Shown: positions 18,518 through 38,062 of the stretch, piece by piece
Layout: the number at the start of each line of letters is the position of its first letter
How positions within the stretch are numbered: position 1 is the first letter of the stretch
DNA from: a bacterium
GTDB taxonomy: Bacteria > Armatimonadota > UBA5829
Length of the DNA stretch: 64,000 nucleotides
NCBI GenBank assembly: GCA_021371935.1
Contig: JAJFVF010000009.1
Span: forward strand, 131,803-195,802
Reading direction: 5' to 3'
The notes under the pieces: model-generated
The model's input: the letters and a program-made list of their open reading frames with translations, nothing else
What the model was told of the DNA's origin: nothing
The model's database searches: none
Made by a program: the position numbers and the translations under genes

Positions 18518-21500
18518 ATGAGACGTATAACCATACTGCTTATTGCATCTTCTTTTGCGTGGTTGATCTTTATTCAGTCTGCATTTTCCGATGTTCACTA
18601 CGTTGTGCCAAACGGAAGCGGTGATGGGTCCAGCTGGACCAATGCCAGATCGTCTATACAGACGGCAATTGACAATGCCACAAGTGGCGATGAGGTCTGG
18701 GTTGCGGCGGGCACGTATGAAGAACAGCTAACATTGCAAGAGGGAGTTTGCATCTACGGTGGCTTTGCAGGCGATGAGACGAGCCGGACTCCTCGAGGCG
18801 CTTGTCCGCCGTCAGGGTCAATTTCCAATGAGACAATTATCAGCAGCAATACCGGTGGTCCCGTTGTATATTCATTGTCTGGGATCACGAATGCGACTGT
18901 GATCGATGGCTTCACCATTAAGAACAAACCAAACCTCGGGAGTGGCATAGTATGCACTTCGTCTTCTCCGATAATAAGCCACAATCGTATAGAGCGTAAC
19001 AATTCGTATGGTGTATACGCATCAACCGGAAGCCCCATTATCGAATACAATGTGATAATTAACAACACAGGTGGCGGTGTTTTCTGTGGCACGTATGCCG
19101 CAGCTAGTGTAAAGAACAACATCATACGCGGCAACAAAGGGCCTGGTGTCTATTGCTGCAGTGACTCGACTGTAAGAGGCAATTTCATCTGTGGCAATGG
19201 CGGATATGGTAATGGCGGCGGCATCTATTGCAGCGGTAGTGCGACAATTGTAAACAATACAGTTGTGTCGAACTTTTCCTGCTTGGATGGCGGCGGTATA
19301 TACATCTACGGTTCTCCAATACTGTCCAATAACATAGTTGCATACAACTCGTCAGGGATAATAGCCGTTTCCGGCACACCCTCACTCAGTTGCAATTGCG
19401 TCTATGGGAATGTCGCCTATGCTTACTCGGGGCTATCTGCAGGCACTGGCGACATTGATGATGATCCAGAGCTTATTGATTTCGAATATGGCAATCTCCA
19501 TATATCCGGCATTTCGCCATGCATCGATGGTGGTGATGACAATGCCGGCACATCCGGCTATGACATCGATGGCGAGGCAAGGAAGACTGGCAATTATGTC
19601 GATATCGGCGCTGACGAGTACTATTCGAATGCATATTCCCAGACGGGTCCTGAGGTCATTGCCATGGTGGATGCAAACGGCAGCGACAACAATGACGGAC
19701 TGTCATGGACTACTCCAAAAGCTACTATCCAGGCTGCAATCGATGTGGCGGCGCGGCAGGGCGGTGAAGTATGGGTCAAGGATGAGACATATGATGAGAA
19801 CCTGACACTGTATGCCTATGTGTATCTGTATGGCGGTTTTCACAATAGTGAGACACAGCTATCTCAGCGAGACTGGCAAAGTTACACTACGACAATAGAT
19901 GGATCGTATGGCAGCGATCCGGTTGTATGCGCAGACTTTGTGGGTCATATGGTCAATTGTATTGATGGGTTTTCGGTAGTAAATGGTGACAATGACCTTG
20001 GTGCGGGCATTCGATGTAAATTTGCCTCCACACGCATATCGAACAATATCATCGAATACAATGACTCTCACATCTGTGGCGGCGGAATATATTGCGGTCA
20101 GGGTTCATTTACTGATATATCCAATAATATCATACGGCACAACACTTGTGATTATGACACAGAAAAGGATCCGTTCGGCGGCGGTGGCATAGGCTGCAGA
20201 CTTGCTTATCCGACCATTACGAATAACCTGATATATCAAAACACCAATGGCGGCGGTGTGTATATTTCCAGAAACGGCGTTTCAACAAGCCTTGCACCTG
20301 CGCTGACGAACAATACGATAGTCAATAATTCGGATATCTACAGCAAGGCTGGGATATATTGCTATTACTGCCCGGCATCCATCAATAATAATATTATTGC
20401 AAGCAACACCGGCTATGGCGTATATTGCGACGGTTCCGGTTCCTCGCTGCCGACGCTGTATAATAACGACTTCTACGGCAACACTACGGCTTGTTATCCC
20501 ACCGGCATCTGGAATACGACTAACATTACCAGCGTCCCGGGGTTCGTCAACACTTCAGCAGGCAACTATCATCTTTCGTCCACTTCAAATTGCATCAACA
20601 ACGGCTTGAATACCGCGGCGGGAATACCAAGTATAGAATTTGATGGCGGGCCACGTATAGTGCCTACTAATGGAACAGTTGACATTGGTGCAGATGAATA
20701 TAGTGACTCCGTACCAACAGGAAGTATACTAGTCAATTCTGGTGATGAAACGACCAGCAGCATAAATGTTGTGCTCAGTTTGTCGGCAACCGATGGTGGA
20801 AGCGGTATAGATCAAATGCAAATCAGCAATGATGGTGTATTTGACACTGAACCTTGGGAGGCATACACAAGAACAAAACAATGGGCACTGGCAGAAGGAC
20901 CAAATGGTATTCGGACAGTGTATGCAAGATTTAAGAACTATATTAGCAATATCTCAAGTACGTATTCCGACACTATTTTACTCGGTAATGGCGAGCAAGT
21001 GTATTGTGTCAGCAATTCCGGTGATAACACATCTGGTATCGGTTGGGATCATGCTCTACATAATATCCAGGATGCGATAGATACTGCGCAGTCTGGTGAT
21101 GAGGTATGGGTAGATAGTGACAGCTATTGTGAATGCATTATACTCACTTCTGGTGTGAAATTGTATGGTGGTTTTTCGTATGGAGACACTTCAAAAGAAG
21201 ATAGATACACACATGAATATTTGATACCGACTTATCTCTCCCCAGGTCAAGGCAGCACAATAACAGTTGAATCTGGCGCAACTAGTACGACTGTCATAGA
21301 TGGATTCAGTATATCAAGGGGAATAGGTACATACAACGGAGGAGCATATTACGGCGGCGCTATATTTTGTAATCAGGCTTCTCCCACGATATCACATAAT
21401 TACATCTATAATAGTGGTTCCTTTCAGGATGCATGCTATGGTGGTGGGATTTATTGCAGCTATGCGTCACCCGTGATTACAAACAATCTCATACTCAGCA

Positions 21501-24500
21501 ATGATTCTACAATAGACGCTGTGGCGGTTTGGTGTTCAAATACAGAACTGACTTTTGTAAACAATACAGTTGCAGCCAATCGGACGAGCATGTATGGTGG
21601 TGGTTTGTACCTCGACCATTGTACAGGACTTGTGGCGAATAACATAATTAGTGATAACTTACTATCCGGCATTCATACTGTTGGCACCACATTCCCAACA
21701 TTTGAAAATAACTGTGTTTCTCGAAATGGCGATTATTGGGTAGTGGCAGATAACTACACAGGTGATATGGCAGAGCCTACTGGTAATGGGAATATCTCCC
21801 TTGACCCACTGTTCGATAATTATGGTTATTACAACCTCACTGTTCTGTCTCCATGTATTGATGCTGGTGACGATACCGCAGCTGGCTCCATCCTGGTCGA
21901 TATATTCTGGCAGACAAGGAAGTTTGATACAAAGCGGGGAAGCGATCTTGTAGATATGGGAGCAGTAGAATACGTTGATACAGTTCCCCCAACAGTAGCC
22001 TCAGTTCATCCAGAAGGTGTATCATCAAACTCTTGCACCTGCTCCACGTCTCAGCTATATGCAACGTGGAGTGTATATAATACGGATGCTGCTACCGAAT
22101 GCCAATATGCCATAGGTGAATCGGCTTCATATCCTCCAAGCACCTATATAGTCGACTGGACTTCGGATGGAGTAACTTGCGATGAGGACCATTACAGTTA
22201 TTGTGTCAGAAAGACAGGCTTGAATCTTCAGTCTGGGCATACTTATTACTTCTACATCAAAGCTATTGATGGTGCAGGAAATGAAAGCGATGTGGCTGTT
22301 GCAGAAGTTACCGTAGGATGCTCCACTCCAACCATAGAGGATGCGCTCAGGTGTGCAGATGGTGAGATTGTAAGCTGCACACTAAACAATCTGATCGTGA
22401 CCGCTGGTACTTCGCAGTTCAATGCCAACGGCGAATACCACATGTATGTATATGATAGCAGTCCGGGAAGAGTAAATACTACTAAATATTATGGTCTTCG
22501 TGTTGATTTTGAAAACGGTACACCTGCATCTTGCCAGCCTGAAGATTATGTGTCGATCAAAGGCAGAATGACCACCATTGGCGGCGAGCGCGTAATGGTG
22601 ATTGACCTTAGCGATCAGTATGACTATTACTATGCCGTTACGAGTGCCAGCAATCAGTTTTCTGTTGAGCGTGTTACAGATCTCTTCCATATTGCTCCCA
22701 ACTCCTATCTGGTTATAAATGGAATCACGATGCCGGGAGTAACCCGTCCTGTTGGTGGTAGTGCATTAAAGGGTAAGCTCGTATCTCCATCAGACATCAA
22801 TTTAGGTGGCTGGTACTATTTCGTAACGTACAAAGATACGGTAAATAAATTCCTTTATGTAGATGATACGAGTGTGAGAGGTCTTGGTCTAGATTCTGAA
22901 GGGAATTCATGCCCTACGGACGGTAACGGCCTCAATAACGGAGTATGCGCTGAAGGTATAAGAGTAGACTACAGTTGGATGGCTGATAGTTTGCCCGTCT
23001 GTGATGTGGGAAGCGGCGTAAAGATTACCGGATTGTGCGCAAGCACCGAAATTGAAACTTATGACCAAGAGAATGAAGACGTAAGGCTCGTAAGGCTGCG
23101 CCAGAATGCAGACCTCCAAGTTGGCCCAACAATCACTTCACCAACACTAAACCAGATCGTGCAATCGGCATATCCAATAATTGTGTTTACTGATCCTATC
23201 AATCTTAAAAACGAAGTAAATGGTTCTGTCCAGAGCAGTCACCAGTTCATACAACTTTCAATCGGAACGGAAGACAATCCTGATGGGACATGTCCAATAC
23301 TGCAGAATTCGACTAATACAGTGCAGTGGCCGGAGACAGACGATGAGTGGATGACTCTACAAGCCGGGATAGATTACTATGCTTTTGTAAGAGTCACCAA
23401 TGATGAGAATTACGAGTCCAATCCGGATTCATGGAGTCCGTGGAGTCCTCATGGGCTTAAGTTCAGAGTGGCACCGACCAGAATCATTACGCCTGTCGAT
23501 GAGTCCACAATCTGGGATGTGACACCGCTGATAAGTTGGAGATATGACAGTGCTTCGGAGTCGGGTGACACATTCCAGGCTAAGGTGACATCAGAAAATG
23601 GCCAAACTCAGTATTGGAGCGGAAGCGTTACGGGTGACGATCATTTGACATGCACCACGGAGCTTTCGTCCGGCACGTATCATGCCTACCTGAAGAAGTC
23701 ATCTGAGACCGAATGGGAAATACATACATTCACAGTCCATACGAACGCATCAGATGCGGGTCAGACCGAAACAGGCACTGCGGAGTATACGTATGATCGA
23801 TATGGAAACCTTGAGACTATGGTCGATTGGCGTGGAACGACAACATACTATTACGATGGGTTGAACAGGCTAATTAAGACGCACCTGACATCCGCCATGC
23901 AAGAGTGGGATGGTCAGGAAGTAATCTACAAACATGGGTCAAATGGCGATAAGAGTGGTTATGACTTGAAGGGTAACCGCACCAGGATGGTTACAGTGAG
24001 TCTTTCTCCGTCATTCACTCATCCGACTAAATATGACTATACGGACCTCGGGCAGCTTGCGAAGGTAACTGACCAGCTTGACGGCGAGACGAAATATACC
24101 TATAACAATATGGGGTTGGTATCGGGCATTACATATCCGAACAACACGTATAGTGTTTATACATACGATGATGCCAGGTACTGGCTCACCAATATCACTC
24201 ATATGAAATCGGACGATGTAACCATAATCGGCAGCTTCACATATGGCTATGATACGGCCAGTGTCGGTAACAATGGAACGCGGACGTCTGTTACGGAAAA
24301 TATTCTGAAGCCTGACGACAGCCGCATACAGTCAGCGGTGACATATTCTTATGATGATCTGTATCGCCTCACAAGCGAGGTTCGGACCGGCAGTGAAGCT
24401 TACAGCAAGTCCTACTATTACGATCTTGCGGGCAACCGCACTTCGATGGTGGATGGCGCGACAACGACCACCTACTTCTACGATGCTGCGAATAAATTGA

Positions 24501-25480
24501 CCTCATCAGTTACCGGTTCCAGCACGACGTTGTATAAATATGATGGCGCGGGAAACATAAGAACAGCCACGACAGATTTTACTGATGTCACCACCTATAC
24601 CTGGGGATTCAGGAATATGATGACCAAGTGGGAGAAGACTGGCGAGACGACTGTTGAGTATGGATATGATGGATATGGGATGAGAGTAATAGTAGTCCCA
24701 GACGGCGGTACGGCTACACGATTCTTGCTTGATCGAAAGGAAATTGCTGAAGAGATTACCGGATCAACTTCTACAACCTACGTAGGACCAGGATTGATTA
24801 GCCAGATATCCGGTGAAACTCGAACAATCTATCATGCCGATGGTCTGGGCAGCACAAGGGCTATAACTAATGGAACTCAGACTGTAATCGAAGCTGGAGT
24901 CTATAGCGCTTATGGCAATCTGGAGGCAGAATACGGTGCTTATTCTAGTGATGGTTTTGGATTTGCAGGACAATACAGATATTATTCCGATGCCACGGGT
25001 CTATATTATATCAAGGCCAGGTACTATAACACCATTCATGGTTCGTTCACAGCACGTGACACAATTGGTGACGTTGCTGGATATAATCTGTACATATACT
25101 GTGACGGCAATCCAGCAAATAACGTTGATCCAACTGGAAATATATATATACCTTTACCTGGCTGGGGTGAAACGACGTTTGAATGGTTGCATTTTATGAA
25201 ATGCATTAATAAAATCATAGAAGAGGCGACTGAAATGCATCGCACAAACGACAAGTTGGCGCATTGTTATTCTGCATGTTCAATCTTACAAAGATGCGTA
25301 CCGCCAATAGGTAAATCAATAAAAGATATTCTTGCTCTAATAGGCGAAATATATAGTTGGGATAATGATATGTATGACAATATAGCCAACAGTATAGGAG
25401 CAGGCCTCGGTGCATCTGGAATGCCATGTTCTTGTGCATGTGAAATTGCAACATCCACTTTGCCCAACAACCCAGGATAA
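18518..25480 (+). CDS. Giant secreted beta-helix/YD-repeat RHS protein with variable C-terminal tip
   Basis: 2320 residues. Signal peptide (1-24) is followed by three right-handed beta-helix modules (about 25-370, 383-731 and 827-1150). Each opens with a GSGDGSSW/AIDNA/GDEVWVAAGTY-type motif and ends near VDIGADEY. Fibronectin- and OB-like beta domains fill about 733-825 and 1150-1745. YD repeats start near 1753 (EYTYDRYGNLETMVDW). The RHS core (about 2146-2207, GFAGQYRYYSDATGLYYIKA to NNVDPTGN) precedes a 113-residue tip with Cys motifs AHCYSAC and GLGASGMPC. By analogy with RHS proteins the tip would be a released effector; its activity is unknown. AAAGGA precedes the ATG. Confidence 0.88.
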   Translation: MRRITILLIASSFAWLIFIQSAFSDVHYVVPNGSGDGSSWTNARSSIQTAIDNATSGDEVWVAAGTYEEQLTLQEGVCIYGGFAGDETSRTPRGACPPSGSISNETIISSNTGGPVVYSLSGITNATVIDGFTIKNKPNLGSGIVCTSSSPIISHNRIERNNSYGVYASTGSPIIEYNVIINNTGGGVFCGTYAAASVKNNIIRGNKGPGVYCCSDSTVRGNFICGNGGYGNGGGIYCSGSATIVNNTVVSNFSCLDGGGIYIYGSPILSNNIVAYNSSGIIAVSGTPSLSCNCVYGNVAYAYSGLSAGTGDIDDDPELIDFEYGNLHISGISPCIDGGDDNAGTSGYDIDGEARKTGNYVDIGADEYYSNAYSQTGPEVIAMVDANGSDNNDGLSWTTPKATIQAAIDVAARQGGEVWVKDETYDENLTLYAYVYLYGGFHNSETQLSQRDWQSYTTTIDGSYGSDPVVCADFVGHMVNCIDGFSVVNGDNDLGAGIRCKFASTRISNNIIEYNDSHICGGGIYCGQGSFTDISNNIIRHNTCDYDTEKDPFGGGGIGCRLAYPTITNNLIYQNTNGGGVYISRNGVSTSLAPALTNNTIVNNSDIYSKAGIYCYYCPASINNNIIASNTGYGVYCDGSGSSLPTLYNNDFYGNTTACYPTGIWNTTNITSVPGFVNTSAGNYHLSSTSNCINNGLNTAAGIPSIEFDGGPRIVPTNGTVDIGADEYSDSVPTGSILVNSGDETTSSINVVLSLSATDGGSGIDQMQISNDGVFDTEPWEAYTRTKQWALAEGPNGIRTVYARFKNYISNISSTYSDTILLGNGEQVYCVSNSGDNTSGIGWDHALHNIQDAIDTAQSGDEVWVDSDSYCECIILTSGVKLYGGFSYGDTSKEDRYTHEYLIPTYLSPGQGSTITVESGATSTTVIDGFSISRGIGTYNGGAYYGGAIFCNQASPTISHNYIYNSGSFQDACYGGGIYCSYASPVITNNLILSNDSTIDAVAVWCSNTELTFVNNTVAANRTSMYGGGLYLDHCTGLVANNIISDNLLSGIHTVGTTFPTFENNCVSRNGDYWVVADNYTGDMAEPTGNGNISLDPLFDNYGYYNLTVLSPCIDAGDDTAAGSILVDIFWQTRKFDTKRGSDLVDMGAVEYVDTVPPTVASVHPEGVSSNSCTCSTSQLYATWSVYNTDAATECQYAIGESASYPPSTYIVDWTSDGVTCDEDHYSYCVRKTGLNLQSGHTYYFYIKAIDGAGNESDVAVAEVTVGCSTPTIEDALRCADGEIVSCTLNNLIVTAGTSQFNANGEYHMYVYDSSPGRVNTTKYYGLRVDFENGTPASCQPEDYVSIKGRMTTIGGERVMVIDLSDQYDYYYAVTSASNQFSVERVTDLFHIAPNSYLVINGITMPGVTRPVGGSALKGKLVSPSDINLGGWYYFVTYKDTVNKFLYVDDTSVRGLGLDSEGNSCPTDGNGLNNGVCAEGIRVDYSWMADSLPVCDVGSGVKITGLCASTEIETYDQENEDVRLVRLRQNADLQVGPTITSPTLNQIVQSAYPIIVFTDPINLKNEVNGSVQSSHQFIQLSIGTEDNPDGTCPILQNSTNTVQWPETDDEWMTLQAGIDYYAFVRVTNDENYESNPDSWSPWSPHGLKFRVAPTRIITPVDESTIWDVTPLISWRYDSASESGDTFQAKVTSENGQTQYWSGSVTGDDHLTCTTELSSGTYHAYLKKSSETEWEIHTFTVHTNASDAGQTETGTAEYTYDRYGNLETMVDWRGTTTYYYDGLNRLIKTHLTSAMQEWDGQEVIYKHGSNGDKSGYDLKGNRTRMVTVSLSPSFTHPTKYDYTDLGQLAKVTDQLDGETKYTYNNMGLVSGITYPNNTYSVYTYDDARYWLTNITHMKSDDVTIIGSFTYGYDTASVGNNGTRTSVTENILKPDDSRIQSAVTYSYDDLYRLTSEVRTGSEAYSKSYYYDLAGNRTSMVDGATTTTYFYDAANKLTSSVTGSSTTLYKYDGAGNIRTATTDFTDVTTYTWGFRNMMTKWEKTGETTVEYGYDGYGMRVIVVPDGGTATRFLLDRKEIAEEITGSTSTTYVGPGLISQISGETRTIYHADGLGSTRAITNGTQTVIEAGVYSAYGNLEAEYGAYSSDGFGFAGQYRYYSDATGLYYIKARYYNTIHGSFTARDTIGDVAGYNLYIYCDGNPANNVDPTGNIYIPLPGWGETTFEWLHFMKCINKIIEEATEMHRTNDKLAHCYSACSILQRCVPPIGKSIKDILALIGEIYSWDNDMYDNIANSIGAGLGASGMPCSCACEIATSTLPNNPG
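24506..24687 (+). repeat. 182-bp RHS homology block, copy 1
   Basis: This segment within the giant gene is repeated at 27149-27330 with only three mismatches by eye. It covers the last YD repeats before the core. Beyond it the two copies diverge. Confidence 0.95.
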
Positions 25481-25494
25481 AGGAGAATTATTCC

Positions 25495-25881
25495 GTGTTG
25501 AATACTAAACAAATTGGTCTTCTCTTATTGTGTTTTTTTATCGGACTTACAGTTGGACTATTGCCAAGTCAGCCTGTTGCGTGGAAAACCCATGAAATGG
25601 AACGCCAGCGCCACGAAGCAGTGCTATTACTTACTATGACAGGTGTAGGACAGGCACAAGAAGATGTCCACAGGTGGCTAGGAAAACCAAACGATATCTA
25701 CAGAAACAACTTGGAACTCACACTCAGCAATCCAGGAGTATTTGTTCCAACCCGCCCAGTTCAGAATTCAACTGTTTGGTTTTTTTCTAAAGATGCTTTT
25801 GTGGTTTATGTTTATATGTCTCCATCGGGAACAGTACAGACCTCTTATGTGGTGCCGCGTGAGAATTGGAGAAGCAGATGA
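25495..25881 (+). CDS. Small membrane-anchored BamE/SmpA-like protein (paralogue 1 of 6)
   Basis: 128 residues with an N-terminal transmembrane or signal helix (6-24) and an external domain containing GVGQAQEDVHRWLGKPND, later VWFFSKDAFVVYVYMSPSG. The pattern 'G-x4-DV-x3-LG-x-P ... YVY-x3-G' recurs in five more genes nearby and resembles the BamE/SmpA fold. GTG start with AAAGGAG upstream. It directly follows the RHS tip, the usual place for an immunity gene; that role is inference. Confidence 0.65.
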   Translation: MLNTKQIGLLLLCFFIGLTVGLLPSQPVAWKTHEMERQRHEAVLLLTMTGVGQAQEDVHRWLGKPNDIYRNNLELTLSNPGVFVPTRPVQNSTVWFFSKDAFVVYVYMSPSGTVQTSYVVPRENWRSR

Positions 25882-26210
25882 AGTTGATAGGCTTATATGC
25901 ATTGTTCACGTTAGTTTTGGTTGGCATCCTATATGAGTGTTATCTTGTTTATGGCCAATACCTTCTTTTGGAAGTGTATCCTTCAAGACAAGAAATGGCG
26001 TATAGAACAATACCAATGATTAGACCCGGCATTATGGACGATGATCTAGTAAAGCTGGCGGGGTCTCCAACTGCCAAAACAATAGGGCGTTCACGCACTT
26101 CTAAAGATGCGGCTTACATATGGGAATATCGCCAGTGGCCAAGTTGTGCTGCATATGTGTATATCGACACACATGGACTTGTGGTTGCTGTCAGATATGT
26201 GCCGACTTAA
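25878..26210 (+). CDS. Small membrane-anchored BamE/SmpA-like protein (paralogue 2 of 6)
   Basis: 110 residues: one membrane helix (3-25), then IRPGIMDDDLVKLAGSP and CAAYVYIDTHGLVVAV, matching the shared pattern. Its ATG overlaps the previous stop (ATGA), with GGAG 6 bp upstream, so the pair is translationally coupled. Confidence 0.6.
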   Translation: MKLIGLYALFTLVLVGILYECYLVYGQYLLLEVYPSRQEMAYRTIPMIRPGIMDDDLVKLAGSPTAKTIGRSRTSKDAAYIWEYRQWPSCAAYVYIDTHGLVVAVRYVPT

Positions 26211-26362
26211 TAAGGATGATAGCAAGCATACGTCTTAGCGACCGTGGTTGTGGTGTATGTTAATAAAAGTATGGAATCACCTCGGCGCATCTCTTGGACA
26301 AGACATCTGTGTAGACTGTGATGAAGCGTGTGTTGAGGCAGTCAGCATATAAGGTGAATATT

Positions 26363-26797
26363 ATGGTCAATATTATTATGCCGTTAGTTTTGTTGGTGGC
26401 TTTCTTCGGTGTGCTGGCATTATATCTTGCTAAGTTACTCGATTTGATCAAGATGTCAGGATGCGTTCTGCTTGTAACCGTACCCATTGCCATGTTGCTA
26501 TACATAGGTCTAATTTTGGGACCATTGAATGAACTTAAATGGTACGCGCCGTACATTTCAGTGAGTGGATTGCACCGTCATGATGTTGTTACGCAATTAG
26601 GAGAGCCAGACAAAGTAATGCCGGCTGGGACATCATTTTGTCCTGTTTATAAGCAGGAAGAAGTATGGTTGTATAACGACGGTCCAAGAATTGCGTCGCG
26701 TACATTTTGCATATTTATATCTAAGAAAGGTAATGTGAGCGCAGTGTTTTCTGCGCGCTATTTCAACGATAATGACCAACACATCAATTCTAGATAG
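26363..26797 (+). CDS. Small membrane BamE/SmpA-like protein, type X (paralogue 3 of 6)
   Basis: 144 residues with two N-terminal membrane helices (about 5-25 and 35-57) ending in a LGPL motif, followed by VSGLHRHDVVTQLGEPDK and EVWLYNDG, then FCIFISKKGNVSAV. It pairs best with the protein at 28175 (same two-helix start and LGPL). Start taken at the ATG after AAGGTG; an upstream GTG at 26318 is possible. It overlaps the next gene by 26 bp. Confidence 0.6.
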   Translation: MVNIIMPLVLLVAFFGVLALYLAKLLDLIKMSGCVLLVTVPIAMLLYIGLILGPLNELKWYAPYISVSGLHRHDVVTQLGEPDKVMPAGTSFCPVYKQEEVWLYNDGPRIASRTFCIFISKKGNVSAVFSARYFNDNDQHINSR

Positions 26798-27137
26798 ACC
26801 ATTGTCAGACAGGAAATTACGTATTGTCATTTTAGCTATAATAATGCTCATTATAATTATACAGTGGGCTTGGATAGCAACGCTGTCTGAATTATATGAG
26901 CTGATGTCAGGTGGTTCTGTGGGGCTTAGGGAGAAGGATGTGCGTAATAAACTTGGTGCTCCTGTGGATGTGGCGCATGATTCTGTTCCACATTTGCCGG
27001 GATTTTATCCTATTCCATCACAAAAAGCGGAACACCAAGGGAAAATCCTAATCTATAAACGCTTTCGTTATTGCGCATACATTTACATAAGCAAATCTGA
27101 TCGAGTGACTGCAAATTTTATTGCGCATAGATTCTGA
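26772..27137 (+). CDS. Small membrane BamE/SmpA-like protein, type Y (paralogue 4 of 6)
   Basis: 121 residues with one membrane helix (about 18-36), LSELYELMSGGSVG, then LREKDVRNKLGAPVD and ILIYKRFRYCAYIYI. It is clearly homologous to the protein at 28595 (shared TLSELY/SLSELY, GLxEKDVR, YHPIP/YPIP, FRYCAY, FIA-RF tail). It overlaps the preceding type X gene, as an X-Y module. Confidence 0.65.
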   Translation: MTNTSILDRPLSDRKLRIVILAIIMLIIIIQWAWIATLSELYELMSGGSVGLREKDVRNKLGAPVDVAHDSVPHLPGFYPIPSQKAEHQGKILIYKRFRYCAYIYISKSDRVTANFIAHRF

Positions 27138-27148
27138 CTATATGTTTT

Positions 27149-27330
27149 TCAGTTACCGGTTCCAGCACGACGTTGTATAAATATGATGGCGCGGGAAACA
27201 TAAGAACAGCCACGACAGATTTTACTGATGTCACCACCTATACCTGGGGATTCAGGAATATGATGACCAAGTGGCAGAAGACTGGCGAGACAACTGTTGA
27301 GTATGGATATGATGGATATGGGATGCGAGT
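27149..27330 (+). repeat. 182-bp RHS homology block, copy 2
   Basis: Near-identical to 24506-24687 (offset 2643 bp, three mismatches seen). It begins 12 bp after the stop of the type Y gene. Confidence 0.95.
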
Positions 27331-28144
27331 GAGGAAAACACCTAGTGGTGGTACACCGACTGATTATTTACTGGATGTTAGTGAAGTTGTCGAAGAGATA
27401 TCGACAACAAATGTGACTTCGTACGCAAGACCATGGTTACCTATTAAGATTTCAGGGACAGCCTATATGGTTTTCTATGCTGATTGCCTTGGTAGCACAC
27501 GGATTATTGCAAATGCAAACTCGATTGTTCAAATGGCGGCTGCATATGATGCATTCGGCAATCCGATTAATGGCATTGCGGAAAGTTTTGGTTTTGCGGG
27601 ACAGTACCGCTATAGCTTGGATTCGATCAACATATATTACCTGAAAGCAAGATATTATAACCCAGAGGTTGGCCGATTCACAAGTAGAGACCCATTAGGT
27701 TATAGGGGTGGAATAAACCTCTATGAATATGCTGGAAACAATCCAGTTATGCGCATTGATCCAACTGGACTTGTGAAGTGGTGGGTACCTTTTGTACCGG
27801 CGTGGATAATGACCTTGATTGATTCACCGTGTTTTGCAAATGCAATTGGTACAGGGCAAGGGTGGAGAGATGGCCATAACAATAATATGGCTCATTGCAC
27901 TCTGACTTGTGAATTGGCAAGGTGTCCTGGATTATCATATGGTGATTCTCAAATACTGGAAGGACTATTCGAGGAATTACAATGGCTATTTGGTCCTTTT
28001 AATAATCCGTGGTGGGATGCTGCAGCTTTTTATGATGCTGTTGGTGATGGATTAGGTAGTTATGGCGATCCTTGTAAATCATGCACGGATCTTTGCCAGC
28101 AAGCTTGGGGTGATGGGATGTTGGACTATACGCCTGCGAACTAA
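27149..28144 (+). pseudogene. Orphan RHS core plus C-terminal tip cassette, no start codon
   Basis: The open frame encodes the last YD repeats, an RHS core (GFAGQYRYSLDSINIYYLKA to NPVMRIDPTG) and a distinct tip. The first 182 bp match the giant RHS gene. There is no ATG and no ribosome site near the beginning; only a TTG inside the homology block. The tip (about 120 residues) keeps the Cys layout of the active tip (MAHCTLTCELARC, GLGSYGDPC) but differs elsewhere. This fits a displaced 'orphan tip' that could replace the current tip by recombination through the 182-bp block. Confidence 0.85.
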
Positions 28145-28174
28145 CATGTTTGTTTAGTGAGGATCAGTAAATTG

Positions 28175-28585
28175 ATGTTTATAGCTGCTGTAGTTATCAT
28201 TTGTTGCACGATGCTGCTTATAGCAATTAGCATTGCACATGTGTTTTCTGTAGTGCGGTTGCCTAAATATTTATTGGTACTTTGCGCTACATTAGGTGTT
28301 GCCTTGTACATTATACTTGGTCCGTTACAACTCCAGAAACTCAGTGCATATGCTTCTTATTTAGGTGTTGTTGGATTAAATACTCGTGATACACGTGCGC
28401 TTCTCGGCGCCCCCAGTCATGTTATTGCTGGATTTCAAGAAACAACTTGGCCGGAACTACACCTGCAGCAGGCAGGGAAGATATGGATATATGATTCTGA
28501 TTTGATGTATGGTTATTCTGTTTACGTTGTATTCAATAAAAGTAATTGCCAGGTAGACACAGTCGCATTAATACGAGAAATATGA
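28175..28585 (+). CDS. Small membrane BamE/SmpA-like protein, type X (paralogue 5 of 6)
   Basis: 136 residues, two N-terminal membrane helices ending in LGPLQLQKL, then VGLNTRDTRALLGAPSH and KIWIYDSD, YSVYVVFNKSN. Homologous to the 26363 gene. GAGG lies upstream; TTG at 28172 or ATG at 28175 is the likely start. It follows the orphan tip by about 30 bp, matching the tip-then-X-then-Y order. Confidence 0.6.
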   Translation: MFIAAVVIICCTMLLIAISIAHVFSVVRLPKYLLVLCATLGVALYIILGPLQLQKLSAYASYLGVVGLNTRDTRALLGAPSHVIAGFQETTWPELHLQQAGKIWIYDSDLMYGYSVYVVFNKSNCQVDTVALIREI

Positions 28586-28594
28586 GGAAGGGAC

Positions 28595-28966
28595 TTGGTA
28601 GAGAAAATGCCGGTTTGGAAAATGCTAACTTCTAGTCGTTCATTGCGTTTTGCCTTTTTTGTGATTATTGTTCTTGCAATAGCTGTACAAATTATATGGT
28701 CAGCTTCATTAAGCGAGCTATACAATTTACTTTCAGGAAGTACAGTTGGTCTTAATGAAAAAGATGTGCGTTTTTATTTGGGTAAACCAACATTGATTGA
28801 GGAGCGTGGTGCAGTTTTCGTTTTCAAAGATTATCATCCAATTCCTACAGATAAGATTAATGCTGGCGAGAAAGTATTGATTTACAAAAAAATACGATAT
28901 TGTGCCTATGTATATATCGACCGTAATGACCATGTCAGATGTAATTTTATTGCGCGTAGATTTTAA
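28595..28966 (+). CDS. Small membrane BamE/SmpA-like protein, type Y (paralogue 6 of 6)
   Basis: 123 residues, one membrane helix (about 20-40), SLSELYNLLSGSTVG, then LNEKDVRFYLGKPTL and VLIYKKIRYCAYVYI, FIARRF. Close homologue of the 26772 protein. TTG start with GAGG 7 bp upstream; an ATG four codons later is the alternative. It follows the type X gene by 9 bp. Confidence 0.65.
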   Translation: MVEKMPVWKMLTSSRSLRFAFFVIIVLAIAVQIIWSASLSELYNLLSGSTVGLNEKDVRFYLGKPTLIEERGAVFVFKDYHPIPTDKINAGEKVLIYKKIRYCAYVYIDRNDHVRCNFIARRF

Positions 28967-29287: not shown

Positions 29288-32200
29288 ATGAATCTCAGGT
29301 CATTGGTTTTTGTGCTTATTGTATCATGTGCATTTATTTTGCAGTCTGCTGGCTCTTTGTTGGCAGTGGATGAAAAGATCACTCCCACAAACAATAGGGT
29401 CATTGACAGGGAAGACAAAGAGTTCAATAACGCTATGCGGGTGTGGTATCAGCATCGTTATGAAGAAGGCGCAAATCTCCTCCAGAAGTTTGTGCAGGAC
29501 TACCCGGACAGCCGCTGGGCTGCCGAAGCAGTGATGCACATCGGTTGTCTGTGCGTATATCAAAAAAAATACGATGAGGCAAAAACGATTTTCAATAACT
29601 TGCTTGCAGAGCATCCAAATGATGAGATCGGAGTCAAGTGCAATCTGCGGCTCGGTAATATTGCCGAGGCAACGGCCGATTACAGCGAAGCTGTCAATAT
29701 GTATAATGCTGCTTTGCGTTGCCCAATGACTTGGGATCAATACAAATATCTTAATGAAAAACTCAAATATTCTGTTAGCGAAAAAGAGACCAGACTAATG
29801 CGGATCAATTGCGGGTCTGTGGCCCTGGCCGCATGCTTGGAAGCAATGGGTAAAGATAATGAAGCTGCAAAGGCAAAAGCTTTCGTTCCTGACCCGGAGG
29901 GTGATTCATTTTATAAGCTGCAATATGAATCGGCGTCGCTTGGAGTTGATGCCAAAGCTGTTGAGATGACAATAGACCAGCTCAAACAGGCAAAGCTGCC
30001 TGTAATAGGCCATGTAAATACAAATCACTTTATTGCCGTGCTAAGCATAAAAAATGGCATGGTTCGAGTTAAGGATTCTATAAAGGGCGAATATCTTATT
30101 TCGCTGTCTGATCTTAGTGTCAAATGGACAGGTAAGGCTCTCACATTCGATACATCGTCTGACCTACAGTCCCTTGACCTGGCAACATCACTTGAAACAC
30201 TGGGAGGCTGCTGTGGTGTTCCAAGTGGCAGAGGTGGTTGTGCTACCTGTCCAGGTGGCGCAAGCCAGGGTGGTAGTAGTGATGGTGGTAGTAGCGCTTG
30301 CGGTCCTTCGGGCTGTGGTGAAATTGTCTCGAGGGGTAGACCTACCCATGATGTCTGGCTGCTTCAGCAGGTGATAAAAGTAACTGATACACCGATATGG
30401 TATAATCCGGGGCGCGGCCCATCGCCGAGCTTTACGATAAATTATGACAACGACTATTCAAGCTCGGGCATCTTCGGCAGCGGCAGCAAAAGCATATTTG
30501 ATTCAAAAGTATACTTTTTGCCAAGCTCAAATGGAGTAAGCACAAAGCTTTCAGCTTCAATCACTTCTTCATCACCTGCCAATAATGGTAGTCTGAGTGT
30601 TATGTCGATCTCCGGCTTTCCGACGAGCGGAGCTGTGGTTGTGACTGACGGCACTAACGCCGAGGTAATTAAATACACCTCAACATCAGAAAACTCTTTC
30701 AACAATATCACTCGCGGTGCAAATCCTATAAGCGTTGATATGAATAGCCAAGATCAGAGTGTCTATTATTCTATAAACGATTTGCAGGTACATCGTGAAG
30801 ATACAAGAGAACTGGATTATCAGTGGAATACATCCAGCCTTAAGTATGTCACCAGTTCAGGTATCTATGGCGAGCTTATAGATGTTGATATGAGACAGCC
30901 CATGGATGATACAATCATGGGCAGAATTGTTGTTATTACACTAAGGAACGGAACCAAATACTATTATCTGTCTGCCAACGAGCCGATAACCACTCAGCAG
31001 GGGCGACTACAGATCATTGAGGATCCTATCGGGCCGCCTGTGACAACCCTTGGTTCAAGTATCAGTACATCGCAGCCGATAGATGGTGGTTCGATAGCTC
31101 TGACAAGCGCATCTCAACTTGCATCCAAGGGTGCAATAATGATTACAAACAGCTCCGACGAAAGTGAGATAATCACATACACGGCAATATCCGGCAATTC
31201 GATTATGAATATTACAAGAGGCGCTCAGGGTACGAGCAAGATAGCTGCAGTTGCAACTGATCCTGTAACACGACTTCTTCGCCTGACTATGAATTACAAT
31301 CAAAGCACTGGTGTAATTGAATCCATTACGGATGCCAACGGTCAAGACACTATCATAGGGACCCAAGGGCAAGACAGCAGTGAGCGAGTGACAAGCATTA
31401 CACTTCCGGATGATCCTCAGAGTCCCACCCAGGCTACTTTTACATATAGTCCTGAAGGTTTTTTGATAGAAAGCACAGATGCTGCAGGCGTTACATCAAG
31501 AATTGATCCTTATGGCGTGGTACATGGCACAAACGCCAGAACAACACTATCAGACGCAATATCGGCGCAAAGCCCAAGCAGTGGGGGGAATTTACAGGTT
31601 GCATCTACCGAGGGACTTCCATACACCGGCTGGGTCAAGATCGGCGGAGTTTTCGGTGAGGTCGTGAAATATAATAGCATTGATTATCAAGCGAATACAC
31701 TTAATCAAATTACGAGAATAAATCCGAGTGCACATGTTGCTGGGACATATGTTGAATATGCTATACCGTCCATCGGTGCGATCGAGACACCATCTATGAA
31801 GACATTCTTTGCATATCATACTATGGGATGGAATGACTACGGTGCTACTCCGGGCACAGAACTCTGGGCTACCTATGAACGTGGCCCTGGTGAGAGTTGG
31901 CCTGACATTTATAGTTCAGATGATAAGCCGACCTGGGGATACGCAATCAATAGTGAGCTGGAAGAATGGCTGTATCATTATCCGACTACTTATGATATCA
32001 ACGCACAGGTGTGGACCGGTGGAATTGCCAAACAATACTGGTTTAATAGCTCTGGTGGAAGTAGCGGGTATAATTTTGTCGCCTCAATGACAGATGCAGA
32101 AGGAAATTCAGTTGGATACACCTATGATGAACACCAAAACAGGACTGCAACAGCCGGAACTGGAGATGGTTCTACATACGAGTTTGATGATCATAGAATA

Positions 32201-33493
32201 GTGTCGAAATACGACACACGGGGTAACAAGTGGGTCAATACATATGATCCCAACACGAAGGACCTCACTGAAGTCAAATGTTACGACAGCAACACTTTGA
32301 GTCTTCTCAAGTATGTGCATAAAATGGACTATTCTTATGGCCTTGTTACCAAAACGGAGATTACAGATCCTGACAATCCGACAATGACGCTGCCTCAGAG
32401 CGAGACTTCCTATTTGTTCGACAGAAAGCCCGCATATACAGATACATACATTATGCATAACACTCTTGCCACTGCACCGATCAGCACTGAGATATACCTA
32501 AATGATGTGTCAGGCTTTCCAACAAGCGGATTGGTTCGCGTCGGCACAGAAATCATTGCCTATAGCAACAAGGATGCGACCTACAATAAGCTTACTGGTC
32601 TGACACGAGCGGTTCTGAACTCGACAACATATAATGCCAGCGTTGATGACCGCGTTTCTGCATTCAACCGCCAGGCTTTTCACTATGATGAAACATATAA
32701 CCAGGAAACGGAGAATCGAGGTTTCTTAACCTCGATAGAGCAGTTAACCGTTGATTCTACCGGCTCCATAGATTCAATATTTACTCGCTACAGATACGAT
32801 GGGAAAGGGCGTCGGGTAAAGGTTATAGATGCTAATGACAATGAAACCGACTATGAATATGATGATCTCGACCGGGTTACCCAAGTAACCAATCCTGACA
32901 GCACGACGAAGAAAACAGAATACACATGTTGCCATAAAATATGGGAAGAAGATGAGAATGGACATCGAGTATATTATGTCTATGATGCAAAAGGACGTCT
33001 AGTAAAAGAAGTGCAGTCAGGCGCATCAACTATTCTGCTATATCCCATAGATGATACACAGACGAATGTTACTGTAAACGATGGAAGCGTTCTGTCCAGC
33101 AGTGGAGCTGTTGTGATAGATAATGAGATTGTTGAGTATTCCAGTAATGTTAACAATATCCTTACTGTAAGCCAAAGAGGTGCTCAGAACTCAATTGCTG
33201 CCAGCCATGACTCGGCAAACGCGGTCGGAAAAGTTTCTGCAGCTGTATCATATGTATACGATCCAATCATACAAAATCGAAAAACAGGGCTCATAGATCC
33301 CGAAAACCATGAGACTACATACGACTACTACGTTAATAACAAGCTCAAGAAAATCAATTATCCCGATGGTACTTGGGAGCAGTATACATATGACGGCTCA
33401 GGAAACATGATTCGTAAGCTCTCAAGTAGTGGTATTGTCATTAATTACACCTATGATTCTGATGGGAAACTGCATAAGGAATCATCTATGTGA
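29288..33493 (+). CDS. Secreted RHS-type protein with TPR and C39-like domains, lacking core and tip
   Basis: 1401 residues. Signal peptide (1-27), TPR-like repeats (about 40-160), then a C39 peptidase-like domain with Cys175 (INCGSVALAACLE), His247 (NHFIAVL) and Asp263, the spacing of a bacteriocin-type cysteine peptidase. A Gly/Cys-rich linker beginning LGGCCG (about 300-345) follows. The rest has YD repeats interrupted by five copies of a 60-70-residue 'SGxxxIxxEIxxYxxxxxNxLxxxTRG' beta module. It stops in a YD repeat (INYTYDSDGKLHKESSM) with no RHS core. GAGAGGAG precedes the ATG. Confidence 0.8.
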   Translation: MNLRSLVFVLIVSCAFILQSAGSLLAVDEKITPTNNRVIDREDKEFNNAMRVWYQHRYEEGANLLQKFVQDYPDSRWAAEAVMHIGCLCVYQKKYDEAKTIFNNLLAEHPNDEIGVKCNLRLGNIAEATADYSEAVNMYNAALRCPMTWDQYKYLNEKLKYSVSEKETRLMRINCGSVALAACLEAMGKDNEAAKAKAFVPDPEGDSFYKLQYESASLGVDAKAVEMTIDQLKQAKLPVIGHVNTNHFIAVLSIKNGMVRVKDSIKGEYLISLSDLSVKWTGKALTFDTSSDLQSLDLATSLETLGGCCGVPSGRGGCATCPGGASQGGSSDGGSSACGPSGCGEIVSRGRPTHDVWLLQQVIKVTDTPIWYNPGRGPSPSFTINYDNDYSSSGIFGSGSKSIFDSKVYFLPSSNGVSTKLSASITSSSPANNGSLSVMSISGFPTSGAVVVTDGTNAEVIKYTSTSENSFNNITRGANPISVDMNSQDQSVYYSINDLQVHREDTRELDYQWNTSSLKYVTSSGIYGELIDVDMRQPMDDTIMGRIVVITLRNGTKYYYLSANEPITTQQGRLQIIEDPIGPPVTTLGSSISTSQPIDGGSIALTSASQLASKGAIMITNSSDESEIITYTAISGNSIMNITRGAQGTSKIAAVATDPVTRLLRLTMNYNQSTGVIESITDANGQDTIIGTQGQDSSERVTSITLPDDPQSPTQATFTYSPEGFLIESTDAAGVTSRIDPYGVVHGTNARTTLSDAISAQSPSSGGNLQVASTEGLPYTGWVKIGGVFGEVVKYNSIDYQANTLNQITRINPSAHVAGTYVEYAIPSIGAIETPSMKTFFAYHTMGWNDYGATPGTELWATYERGPGESWPDIYSSDDKPTWGYAINSELEEWLYHYPTTYDINAQVWTGGIAKQYWFNSSGGSSGYNFVASMTDAEGNSVGYTYDEHQNRTATAGTGDGSTYEFDDHRIVSKYDTRGNKWVNTYDPNTKDLTEVKCYDSNTLSLLKYVHKMDYSYGLVTKTEITDPDNPTMTLPQSETSYLFDRKPAYTDTYIMHNTLATAPISTEIYLNDVSGFPTSGLVRVGTEIIAYSNKDATYNKLTGLTRAVLNSTTYNASVDDRVSAFNRQAFHYDETYNQETENRGFLTSIEQLTVDSTGSIDSIFTRYRYDGKGRRVKVIDANDNETDYEYDDLDRVTQVTNPDSTTKKTEYTCCHKIWEEDENGHRVYYVYDAKGRLVKEVQSGASTILLYPIDDTQTNVTVNDGSVLSSSGAVVIDNEIVEYSSNVNNILTVSQRGAQNSIAASHDSANAVGKVSAAVSYVYDPIIQNRKTGLIDPENHETTYDYYVNNKLKKINYPDGTWEQYTYDGSGNMIRKLSSSGIVINYTYDSDGKLHKESSM

Positions 33494-34549: not shown

Positions 34550-37500
34550 CTATTTGTTATGCGGCCAGGGATAGGTATTGTCTTTGACAAGATTGTAATT
34601 GGCATCCAGCTTGGTTTCCAAGAGAAGTATGGCAGCTATGCGGCGGGCTATGTTGGTCACTTCCAGCGCTTCTTCGGGCTTTAGAGGGCGTTTGAGCAAG
34701 CCGAACTCGCGATAGCTGAGCCATTTTTTGATGACTTGATATCCGCCGATATGATAGTCCCAGACCCTGGCGGGAATGTTTTTCCAGTATGCCTTATTGT
34801 TGAGATAGACATCAAAAGTAGACTCGCCGAAACCGCATTTATCGCAGACTCCCCTAGATTCGAGCTTGCCTTTGCCGGGCATAGTCACTCCGTCTTTGCC
34901 AGAGTGCCCCCAACCTACCGTAAGAGCCAAGTCTCCGGCGTCCGGGTTCAGAGAATCTCCACAGGACGCCGTAAGCACGGCTATACTTTGAAGCTCGGGC
35001 ATGATCGAACCGGAAGTTACGCCTGGAACATCCTTTTCAGTATCCAGCAGTGCGGCAATCTTTGTGCCGAGTTCGGCTGAGGCGAAAAGCAAGTTTTTTG
35101 AGTTTGGCAGAGGTATACGCGGCCAGTCCTGACGGATGCCGTCTGCATTCTCGCTGAGATACAGAGGCGAGTAACCTATGGCAAGAACATGCATCCAAAT
35201 CAAACCGGCAATTTGAACATCCGAATCGGGATTGGAGATGCCGAGGCTACTGAGATAAGTACGCGCTTGTGGCGAAAGGTTTGCAGTTGAATTTTTACAT
35301 TCTGACAAAATTCCAGGAAGATCCATATTTGTGGTTGATGGGCAAGAAGAATTAGCAATAAAAACAGGGAAAGCTCCTGGATTGCGGCTAATGGTTTGCT
35401 TATCGAATAGACCAGACGATATAAATATCGGCACGCCTTCAGGTGATGATTGAACATTAGATCGGCTTATTATAAAAGTGTTGTTTCGCTTGCACTGTTC
35501 ATATAGTGAAGGGCGAGGCCTGTTCCAAAGTGGAGGAATAGCTGAGTAATAGCAATATCTTGTCTCGAATGGACGGACAAGATAAGGCATAATATGTTCG
35601 CATGAAAAGCTCTCGGTGCTTAGTAGCTTTTGCCTTGCAGACTTTGCATTGAATGAGCGTGTACTTATAGTCAATTTAGTCTCATAGGCAGCGAGTGAAT
35701 TCCAGTCAACACTTGGATCATAGTAGTCACGCATTCTATCAGCCAGTCGATCCTTGTCAATATCAATCAATGCACCGCCGCGACATTCCTCAAGACCAAC
35801 AAAAGCAGATTTACCTGCAAAAGCAGGCATGCTTGGCCACGCTCGATAATGCGACGCCACAACCCCCGGCCTGAATGAATATCTGTTTTCGGGCTTAGGC
35901 TCGGCTAATTGGTAGTATGCATTAAGGTCTGCATTTGCAAGGCTGTCTTTGACATCTTGGCGTTTGGTAACTCCCCAAAACTGCCGAAATCGGACAGCCT
36001 GATTATTAACTTCTGCACCTTTGCGGACCATCAAACCAATAGTGGTACCTAAGCGTATGCCTTCGCGATTATACTGCGTAGAAAAAACGCTTGGGTCCGG
36101 TTTGCCATCAGGGGTCAGCTTTCCGGTCTCCCGACTATCACCGTTCATACAATCAAACCATAATGAATCAAATCCATTGAGAAAGCGCTGACGCATAACC
36201 ACGTATGATGCATCACTCAGATAAGAGTAATTTGATATGTAGCAGACTATCCCTTTTCCGGTTTTCTCCGCAATTCTCCTTTCGGCCAAGCGGAAGAAAC
36301 GGATATACAAGTCATCCATATTGAACTTTTTAATGCCCCACTCAGAGATCAGACCCTCCTTGTACGGCTCGACAAGACCCTGCTCCTCTTTCGGACTTGT
36401 GCCCGCAAATGCGTTATACGGCGGATTCCCCAGAATCACTAAAATTGGCTTATCACGTTTAACCTCATCAGCGGCGTCACGCTCCTGTTCGAGTTCTGGC
36501 CAAAGCAGTTGGGTCTTGGGTTCCTGTGGAGGTTCCCAACCAGTGAGGGCATTGGTGAGATATACCCCGGCACGCTCGGAACCATCTTCTTTGAGCGGTG
36601 CGGACAAGCCTTGCAAAAACAAGCCAAGCTGCATGTGCGCAATAACAAACGGCGCGGGGAGAATCTCGAAACCAAAAACACGGGTGGTAGCGGCTTTCTT
36701 TATATCGTGGCCTATCAGGGCATCATTGCGCTTACTTTTAAGAGTCTTTTCTATGCGCTTGAGGACTTCCACCAGATATGCACCTGTGCCGCAGCAGGGG
36801 TCGAGTATATAGACACTCGGATCGGCAAGGCCGTCGGCAATATCCAACTCCTCGCGGAGAACGGTATCGACTCGCTCAACCATATATTCAATGATTTCAG
36901 GAGGGGTATACCATACGCCCATTTCTTTACGGAGTTCGGGATCGAATGCCTCAAGGAACGGCTCATAGAAATATTGAACAGCATGCTCCTCCTGGAAACG
37001 ATCAAAAAATACGGCACGGTCAACACGGTTAAGTGTCTCACCCGCCCAGGTCATGATGTCTTCCAATTGAAGCGGCCCGAGCTTTGACGGTGCGGATATC
37101 TGCTCAAAAAGTACCCGGATCATTGGGACATGCAGTGACCACTGAGCCATACGCCAGTCAAATCGGGCGGACGCGTTATCTTTGTTTTGTTTGCACCACA
37201 GCACCCATGCAGAAAAGAGGCCATAAAAGAGTGTCTGAACCAGGGTCGAACGGAAGAAATGCTCACCCTTTTCATCCTTGAACTGAAGACCTAGCGCCTC
37301 TTCCAACGCAGCACGAATTGACTTAAGCGCATCCATGTCTTTTGCTGATTCGATCCGCGCCTTGGCGTCACGAGCATATGAAGCAAGAAACCATGCAAGG
37401 TCTTTGGGGTCGGCAAGAGGGGCATTGCGCTGCATGACGCGCTTGAGATATTCTATGAACTGTTCGCCATACCGTTCTGCCATACTCCGCGGATGAGCTG

Positions 37501-37960
37501 CTTCACGCCAGAATTGCTCATGCGAATCAGCTATAGTGCAGCGCTCAAGATTTGTATGAATGCCGTTATCGCCGCGCTGAATGAGCAGGAAATCTCTGTA
37601 ATTGGTAACCAACACAAGGCCATAACGCTCCACGTAATCTTTGACCTGTTTGGTCTGTGAGATATGCAGCACATCCTCTGATGTGCCCTTTACTTCGATT
37701 GCACCGCGGGAAGGAATTTGATCAAAAACAGTATCTATGTCTGAATTCTTGCGCAATTGATCGGGTGTAAAAAGTCCGCCATCCGGCAAGCCTGCACCCT
37801 GATTGCGCAAGTTTATTACACAATTGACCTTGGGTTTGAGTGTCTTGCCGATTTCGTTTGAGAGATTGGCAAGAGCGCCGTAATACGAAGTCTCTGCAAC
37901 ATTTGCACCAGTTGCGTGTGCTGTGTAGAGTTCTCGAATATAGGTCTCAAATGGATTCAT
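34550..37960 (-). CDS. Type ISP/IIG-like restriction-modification enzyme
   Basis: 1136 residues combining cleavage and N6-adenine methylation in one chain. An N-terminal PD-(D/E)xK-like nuclease shows DGGLF (about 61) and AIEVKG (about 85). A helical linker follows, then a methyltransferase with motif I DPCCGTGAY (about 385) and motif IV NPPYNAF (about 509), preceded by GVWYTPPEII. The C-terminal part (about 650-1136) should be the target recognition domain. The helicase of full type ISP enzymes (about 1600 residues) is missing. ATG at 37960 follows GGGGGAG. The enzyme is consistent with phage defence. Confidence 0.85.
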   Translation of the reverse strand: MNPFETYIRELYTAHATGANVAETSYYGALANLSNEIGKTLKPKVNCVINLRNQGAGLPDGGLFTPDQLRKNSDIDTVFDQIPSRGAIEVKGTSEDVLHISQTKQVKDYVERYGLVLVTNYRDFLLIQRGDNGIHTNLERCTIADSHEQFWREAAHPRSMAERYGEQFIEYLKRVMQRNAPLADPKDLAWFLASYARDAKARIESAKDMDALKSIRAALEEALGLQFKDEKGEHFFRSTLVQTLFYGLFSAWVLWCKQNKDNASARFDWRMAQWSLHVPMIRVLFEQISAPSKLGPLQLEDIMTWAGETLNRVDRAVFFDRFQEEHAVQYFYEPFLEAFDPELRKEMGVWYTPPEIIEYMVERVDTVLREELDIADGLADPSVYILDPCCGTGAYLVEVLKRIEKTLKSKRNDALIGHDIKKAATTRVFGFEILPAPFVIAHMQLGLFLQGLSAPLKEDGSERAGVYLTNALTGWEPPQEPKTQLLWPELEQERDAADEVKRDKPILVILGNPPYNAFAGTSPKEEQGLVEPYKEGLISEWGIKKFNMDDLYIRFFRLAERRIAEKTGKGIVCYISNYSYLSDASYVVMRQRFLNGFDSLWFDCMNGDSRETGKLTPDGKPDPSVFSTQYNREGIRLGTTIGLMVRKGAEVNNQAVRFRQFWGVTKRQDVKDSLANADLNAYYQLAEPKPENRYSFRPGVVASHYRAWPSMPAFAGKSAFVGLEECRGGALIDIDKDRLADRMRDYYDPSVDWNSLAAYETKLTISTRSFNAKSARQKLLSTESFSCEHIMPYLVRPFETRYCYYSAIPPLWNRPRPSLYEQCKRNNTFIISRSNVQSSPEGVPIFISSGLFDKQTISRNPGAFPVFIANSSCPSTTNMDLPGILSECKNSTANLSPQARTYLSSLGISNPDSDVQIAGLIWMHVLAIGYSPLYLSENADGIRQDWPRIPLPNSKNLLFASAELGTKIAALLDTEKDVPGVTSGSIMPELQSIAVLTASCGDSLNPDAGDLALTVGWGHSGKDGVTMPGKGKLESRGVCDKCGFGESTFDVYLNNKAYWKNIPARVWDYHIGGYQVIKKWLSYREFGLLKRPLKPEEALEVTNIARRIAAILLLETKLDANYNLVKDNTYPWPHNK

Positions 37961-38062
37961 CGACTCCCCCGGCGACAAACAAGCGCCGATGATATGTTCG
38001 ACTTGGAATCAAAAAATCCCTTTGTAAAGATATGTATTCGGAAATCGCCATAGGTAAAATAG

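What the first reader, a model, noticed from the sequence alone, without database searches (positions are those of the whole stretch)
24506..28966. RHS tip switching: a 182-bp near-identical block links the expressed RHS gene to an orphan core-plus-tip
Seen: 24506-24687 and 27149-27330 match with three differences, then diverge into two cores with different C-terminal tips. The second copy has no start codon. Known: displaced orphan tips occur in rhs loci. Inference: recombination through the block would replace tip A with tip B and delete the 2.6 kb carrying tip A's small genes. Such a switch in a beta-helix/RHS hybrid from this lineage seems undescribed.
Basis: partly seen in the sequence, partly recalled or inferred. 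Interest (0 to 1): 0.75.

Follow-up and report, generated by a model that had tools for sequence, protein, structure and literature searches.

The report
RHS toxin gene with orphan tip
A bacterial surface-toxin gene sits next to a spare, start-less toxin end that shares a nearly identical 182-base stretch with it, so one recombination event could swap the ends; the trick is known from Salmonella, and here the ends look like lipid-attacking 'lipocone' toxins with membrane-anchored antidotes.

Summary
In detail: 24506-24687 and 27149-27330 match at 179 of 182 bases, are in the same reading frame, and occur nowhere else in the genome. After the block the two RHS cores fall to 60% nucleotide identity. 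The second copy has no usable start.

This is a polymorphic RHS toxin locus with a displaced orphan core-plus-tip. (1) Tips A and B are homologous; their family carries the Lipocone signature (DKxxH...E...D..N..G). (2) The six small genes are membrane-anchored BamE-like proteins, the reported immunity type for Lipocone toxins. (3) A 3' relic of a third tip probably lies between them. (4) Orphan arrays with repeated core blocks occur in nine other genomes of the phylum and on another contig of this genome.

Switching by homologous recombination is plausible but not seen here. It was demonstrated in Salmonella in 2014 through 522 bp at 95% identity. So this is a new member of a known kind.

A side finding may be newer: the RHS shell looks split over two genes, an RHS-core-tip half on a beta-helix protein and a TPR-C39-RHS half downstream, shared by four genomes.

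The parts
18518..25480 (+). main gene, 2320 aa: signal peptide, right-handed beta-helix and choice-of-anchor Q repeats, RHS repeats (aa ~1757-2128), RHS core (aa 2129-2207), tip A (aa 2208-2320)
24506..24687 (+). recombination block, copy 1, inside the main gene just before the RHS core
24902..25138 (+). RHS core A (TIGR03696)
25139..25480 (+). tip A, Lipocone-like toxin domain (DKLAHC, E, D, ANxxG, Cys)
25495..25881 (+). g1, TM-anchored BamE-like small protein, probable immunity
25878..26210 (+). g2, TM-anchored BamE-like small protein, probable immunity
26275..26352 (+). relic of a third tip (C): last ~25 codons, NHLGASLGQDICVDCDEACVEAVSI-stop
   Evidence: 17 of 3000 shuffles score as high; tentative
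26363..26797 (+). g3, two-TM BamE-like protein, paralogue of g5
26772..27137 (+). g4, TM-anchored BamE-like protein, 47% identical to g6
27149..27330 (+). recombination block, copy 2, start of the orphan cassette
27331..27769 (+). rest of the orphan RHS core region (TIGR03696 at 27545-27772, 80 bits)
27770..28144 (+). tip B, Lipocone-like toxin domain, start-less orphan
28157..28585 (+). g5, two-TM BamE-like protein (likely start ATG 28175), probable immunity of tip B
28595..28966 (+). g6, TM-anchored BamE-like protein, probable immunity of tip B; AlphaFold model matches BamE, OsmE, BLIP-like and BtiO
29288..33493 (+). TPR - C39 peptidase - RHS protein without core or tip, possible N-terminal half of a split RHS shell

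Best explanation
The locus encodes a surface-exported RHS polymorphic toxin whose C-terminal end is exchangeable. The expressed gene ends in tip A, followed by two membrane-anchored immunity proteins. Earlier ends have been pushed downstream: a 3' relic of tip C with its two immunity genes, then an intact but start-less core plus tip B with its two immunity genes. The tips most likely act as Lipocone enzymes on lipid head groups in the envelope of rival cells, and the BamE-like immunity proteins block them at the periplasmic membrane face. The orphan probably arose when a new core-tip-immunity module entered by homologous recombination on its left and a non-homologous join on its right, leaving the 182 bp duplicated. 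RecA-type recombination between the two blocks would put tip B in frame on the main gene and remove core A, tip A and g1-g4. Shown: anatomy, homologies, frame, uniqueness, similar arrays in relatives. Inferred: toxicity, immunity, order of events, and that switching occurs.
For: Block identity, frame and uniqueness. RHS core before both tips. Tip family of 25 aligned members: His 24/25, Asp 25/25, Gly 25/25, four Cys 25/25, Glu 21/25, DK before the His in most, the pattern published for Lipocone domains. One member reaches DUF6973 at E 4.7e-4. Small genes: all six have a TM segment; the g6 model matches BamE/OsmE/BLIP-like/BtiO at Z 6-7.7. In the loci of relatives all ten hits of the small-gene profile lie directly after a Lipocone-like tip, five of them (one marginal) not used to build it; the window's six follow tips A, relic C and B in pairs. 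The Lipocone paper reports membrane-anchored BamE-like proteins as the most widespread immunity for such toxins. Relic C: 17/3000 shuffles score as high. Orphan arrays with repeated core blocks. Experimental precedent for the switch, PMC3967940.
Against: No switched junction was seen. The tip's AlphaFold model is poor (pLDDT 49), so the fold is not confirmed. Z values for BamE are in the range that can be a common arrangement. Each tip has two small genes here instead of the one seen in relatives. G016's main gene with such a tip has no BamE-like gene directly after it, and several more distant tips have other membrane partners. Relic C is short.
Confidence: 0.75

Rival explanations
1. The orphan is a decaying displaced remnant and the block is only a by-product of the insertion that created it; no switching occurs, and what selection keeps is the immunity genes.
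For: No start codon or Shine-Dalgarno for the orphan; relic C shows that displaced tips decay while the small genes stay; contig C19 of the same genome has orphan cores with stop codons; retention of orphan immunity genes is known (PMC5361080).
Against: Orphan B is open over 337 codons, keeps a canonical core (80 bits, more than core A) and the conserved tip residues; 126 bp of perfect identity remain in frame.
Confidence: 0.4
2. The block is an assembly duplication or misjoin.
For: Multi-contig assembly, no reads available; a 182-bp repeat can confuse an assembler.
Against: Three differences, unique flanks on all four sides, an unbroken 2320-codon frame through copy 1, position inside a 267 kb contig; similar arrays in other genomes.
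Confidence: 0.05
3. The duplication arose inside the genome: a tandem duplication of the 3' end of the main gene, followed by divergence of core and tip.
For: Tips A and B are homologous (30%) and g4/g6 are paralogues (47%).
Against: Divergence jumps from 1.6% to 40% at the block's right edge, so core and tip cannot have diverged since the block was copied unless the block was exchanged later.
Confidence: 0.08

Closest known systems
Salmonella Typhimurium LT2 rhs main / rhs-CT orphan (Koskiniemi et al. 2014, PMC3967940)
   Same: Main gene and downstream start-less orphan tip share a near-identical stretch; recombination fuses them and removes the main immunity gene; linked immunity gene
   Different: 522 bp at 95% there, 182 bp at 98.4% here; there recombination was shown by Southern blot, qPCR and PCR sequencing; here the carrier is a signal-peptide beta-helix protein and the tips are Lipocone-like
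Lipocone polymorphic toxins with BamE-like immunity (eLife 2025, PMC12419801)
   Same: His-Glu-Asp pattern, DK before His, sNxxG in many members, membrane-anchored BamE-like partner directly downstream
   Different: Extra conserved Cys pairs; two immunity genes per tip; which Lipocone family (Min-Wnt, CapCone, ClaspCone or other) is not resolved
Tip displacement and immunity arrays of polymorphic toxins (Zhang et al. 2012, PMC3482391; Vibrio T6SS, PMC5361080)
   Same: Tip plus immunity as one cassette; strings of older immunity genes on the 3' side
   Different: Here a probable remnant of one displaced tip and a full orphan core-plus-tip are both kept
Tc toxin B/C subunits (general knowledge)
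   Same: RHS shell made from two polypeptides, one of which carries core and variable tip
   Different: C39 peptidase and TPR on the N-half, beta-helix carrier on the C-half, tip gene first and immunity genes between the two; a resemblance only

Membership tests
RHS polymorphic toxin with orphan module | RHS repeats and RHS-associated core followed by a tip | tested here: met
   TIGR03696 at aa 2129-2207 of the main gene and in the orphan
RHS polymorphic toxin with orphan module | Orphan lacks start and export signal but shares sequence with the main gene | tested here: met
   182 bp at 98.4%, no start with Shine-Dalgarno
RHS polymorphic toxin with orphan module | Tip differs between relatives at the same locus | tested here: met
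   G005:C62, G016:C212, G024:C276 carry other tips
RHS polymorphic toxin with orphan module | Tip is toxic and the neighbouring gene protects | not testable with these tools
   needs expression tests
RHS polymorphic toxin with orphan module | Recombination fuses main gene and orphan | not tested
   no reads or sister strains held
Lipocone toxin domain | His in helix 2 (DK four before), Glu in helix 3, Asp in helix 4, Gly capping helix 4 | tested here: met
   25-member alignment against the published pattern; helix assignment rests on a weak model
Lipocone toxin domain | Four-helix cone fold | tested here: inconclusive
   AlphaFold pLDDT 49, helices in the expected order
Lipocone toxin domain | Profile match to a named Lipocone family | tested here: inconclusive
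   only DUF6973 at E 4.7e-4, below its cut-off, in one member; whether DUF6973 is a Lipocone family was not tested
BamE-like immunity protein | Membrane anchor plus the helix and strands of BamE | tested here: met
   TM in g1-g6; g6 model pLDDT 78, best matches BamE, BtiO, BLIP-like, OsmE at Z 6-7.7; no Pfam hit
BamE-like immunity protein | Linked to a Lipocone tip | tested here: met
   all profile hits in window and relatives lie after such tips

The most novel reading that the evidence does not exclude
The locus is a two-gene (split) RHS toxin. Its shell is completed by a second protein, a TPR-C39 peptidase-RHS half encoded downstream. Only the tip-bearing half, on a beta-helix surface protein, undergoes tip switching, and the orphan array sits between the two halves.
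Probability: 0.35. Interest if true: 0.55.

Novelty: new member of a known kind. Interest (0 to 1): 0.36.

Why it matters
It extends tip displacement and orphan cassettes of RHS toxins to a little-studied lineage, and ties them to the recently proposed Lipocone toxins with BamE-like immunity. The block is short and nearly perfect, which makes switching directly testable by PCR or long reads. The split RHS arrangement, if real, shows a second way to build a two-part RHS shell.

Tried and rejected
A scan of named genomes with the core-tip alignment found only remote RHS proteins and did not name the lineage. PDB sequence searches with tip and small-gene profiles gave nothing meaningful. The tip model (pLDDT 49) was not used for fold searches. 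Full-length orthologues of the main gene in the same genus: none. g4/g6 relatives in 27 other genomes of the class with the two-row profile: none; a wider profile on loci of relatives found them only after tips. Papers on DUF6973, BtiO, split Rhs, or RHS with C39: none held. Chance was rejected as the source of the block (98.4% over 182 bp, in frame, unique in the genome).

Full report
OBSERVATION. The repeat is real. 24506-24687 and 27149-27330 match at 179 of 182 bases, differing at 24632, 24649 and 24683, with a longest perfect run of 126 bp. A search of the 3.54 Mb genome finds these two places only, on one 267 kb contig. Left of the block the two places are unrelated (43% identity, the shuffled level). 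Right of it both continue as RHS core but at 60% nucleotide identity. Both copies are in the same reading frame. The orphan frame is open for 337 codons; its first ATG, GTG or TTG is a TTG at 27173 without a Shine-Dalgarno sequence.

ANATOMY. The main gene encodes a signal peptide, beta-helix and choice-of-anchor Q repeats, RHS repeats, RHS core and tip A. The orphan encodes the block, an RHS core with a higher score than core A, and tip B. Tips A and B align at 30% with shared His, Cys, Asp and Gly residues. Six small genes lie in pairs: g1-g2 after tip A, g3-g4 before the orphan, g5-g6 after tip B. g4 and g6 are 47% identical, g3 and g5 26%. Between g2 and g3 a frame ends in NHLGASLGQDICVDCDEACVEAVSI-stop, ten bases before the likely start of g3, resembling the last part of tips A and B. 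17 of 3000 dinucleotide shuffles of the region score as well. I read it as the relic of a third tip, C, whose small genes are g3-g4. This is tentative but fits the pairing.

WHAT THE TIPS ARE. Searching 291 genomes of the phylum with eight tips gave matches in 17 genomes. In 25 aligned members the His is kept in 24, four Cys, the Asp and the Gly seven residues on in all 25, a Glu between them in 21, and DK stands four residues before the His in most. This is the pattern described for the Lipocone superfamily: His in helix 2 with DK upstream, Glu in helix 3, Asp in helix 4, small-Asn after it, and a capping Gly (PMC12419801). The AlphaFold model has helices in the right order but low confidence (pLDDT 49), so the fold is not confirmed.

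WHAT THE SMALL GENES ARE. All six have one or two TM segments at the N-terminus and a G-x-P motif, mostly LGxP. The g6 model (pLDDT 78) matches BamE, the Bacteroides T6SS immunity protein BtiO, a beta-lactamase-inhibitor-like protein and OsmE best (Z 6-7.7); Z in this range alone would be weak, but most of the top rows are of that one fold. A profile of these genes hits the six window genes and ten places in the loci of relatives, each of the ten directly downstream of a Lipocone-like tip; five of the ten (one marginal) were not used to build the profile. The Lipocone paper reports membrane-anchored BamE-like proteins as the most widespread immunity of such toxins. Toxin and immunity are therefore the best reading, though untested.

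RELATIVES. Orphan core-plus-tip arrays with repeated core blocks occur in G002, G003, G004 (same genus), G005, G007, G010, G015, G020 and G044, and on contig C19 of the same genome, with block identities of about 65-94%. G007 has the same tip-immunity pairs, one tip without any core. G044 has a string of cassettes with unlike tips. The window's block is the most similar of those seen. At the syntenic locus in G005, G016 and G024 the tip is different and there is no orphan.

MECHANISM. A module entering by homologous recombination on the left and by a non-homologous join on the right, just upstream of the crossover, would duplicate a short stretch and leave the old core and tip as an orphan. 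That explains the sharp left edge 11 bp after g4's stop and the sharp loss of identity at the right edge. Such homology-facilitated events, and retention of old immunity genes, are proposed for Vibrio (PMC5361080) and for polymorphic toxins in general (PMC3482391). The reverse event through the block would put tip B on the main gene. In Salmonella this was shown with 522 bp at 95% identity (PMC3967940), probably after duplication of the locus so that the main immunity gene is not lost. Here no junction was seen.

SPLIT RHS. A 1533-aa protein in G016 (L043) carries TPR, C39 peptidase, DUF6531, RHS repeats, core and a Lipocone-like tip in one chain. The G024 C39-RHS protein (aa 71-1000) aligns to its residues 92-1009, and the window's main gene (aa 1757-2319) to its residues 1017-1533. 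The four C39-RHS proteins end at the same alignment position without core or tip, always downstream of an RHS-core-tip gene and small genes. In 291 genomes this N-half occurs in these four genomes only, with two further full-length versions in G016. The two genes thus look like halves of one RHS shell. This is an inference from sequence.

VERDICT. The lineage could not be named with the tools at hand.

Noticed in passing
window 29288-33493; L045, L047, L048, L043: TPR-C39 peptidase-RHS protein without core or tip, conserved downstream of the RHS-tip gene in four genomes; together they tile a full-length RHS protein of G016, suggesting a split RHS shell.
   Followed up: partly
L173 (G000:C19:205000-224000): Second RHS locus of the same genome: 1285-aa main gene with an unrelated, HNH-like looking tip and downstream orphan cores at 86% and 78% identity, some with stop codons.
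   Followed up: partly
L046 (G044:C52:1-8000): String of five orphan core-tip cassettes with unlike tips, mostly followed by their own small genes; core segments up to 94% identical.
   Followed up: partly
L042 8844-8889 and 12773-12818 (G007:C256): A ~40-bp repeat scattered at dozens of places in G007 sits at the left edge of its orphan cassettes; a possible join site.
   Followed up: no
window 34550-37978, - strand: Type ISP restriction-modification enzyme (Type_ISP_C, N6_Mtase) close to the toxin locus.
   Followed up: no
L120 3605-4519 (G020:C31): Tip with a weak DUF6973 match whose downstream partner looks like an ankyrin-type protein instead of a BamE-like one.
   Followed up: no
window 29288-33493, aa 306-309: An invariant GGCC motif follows the C39 domain of the C39-RHS proteins; C39 peptidases cut after double glycine, so self-processing is possible.
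   Followed up: no
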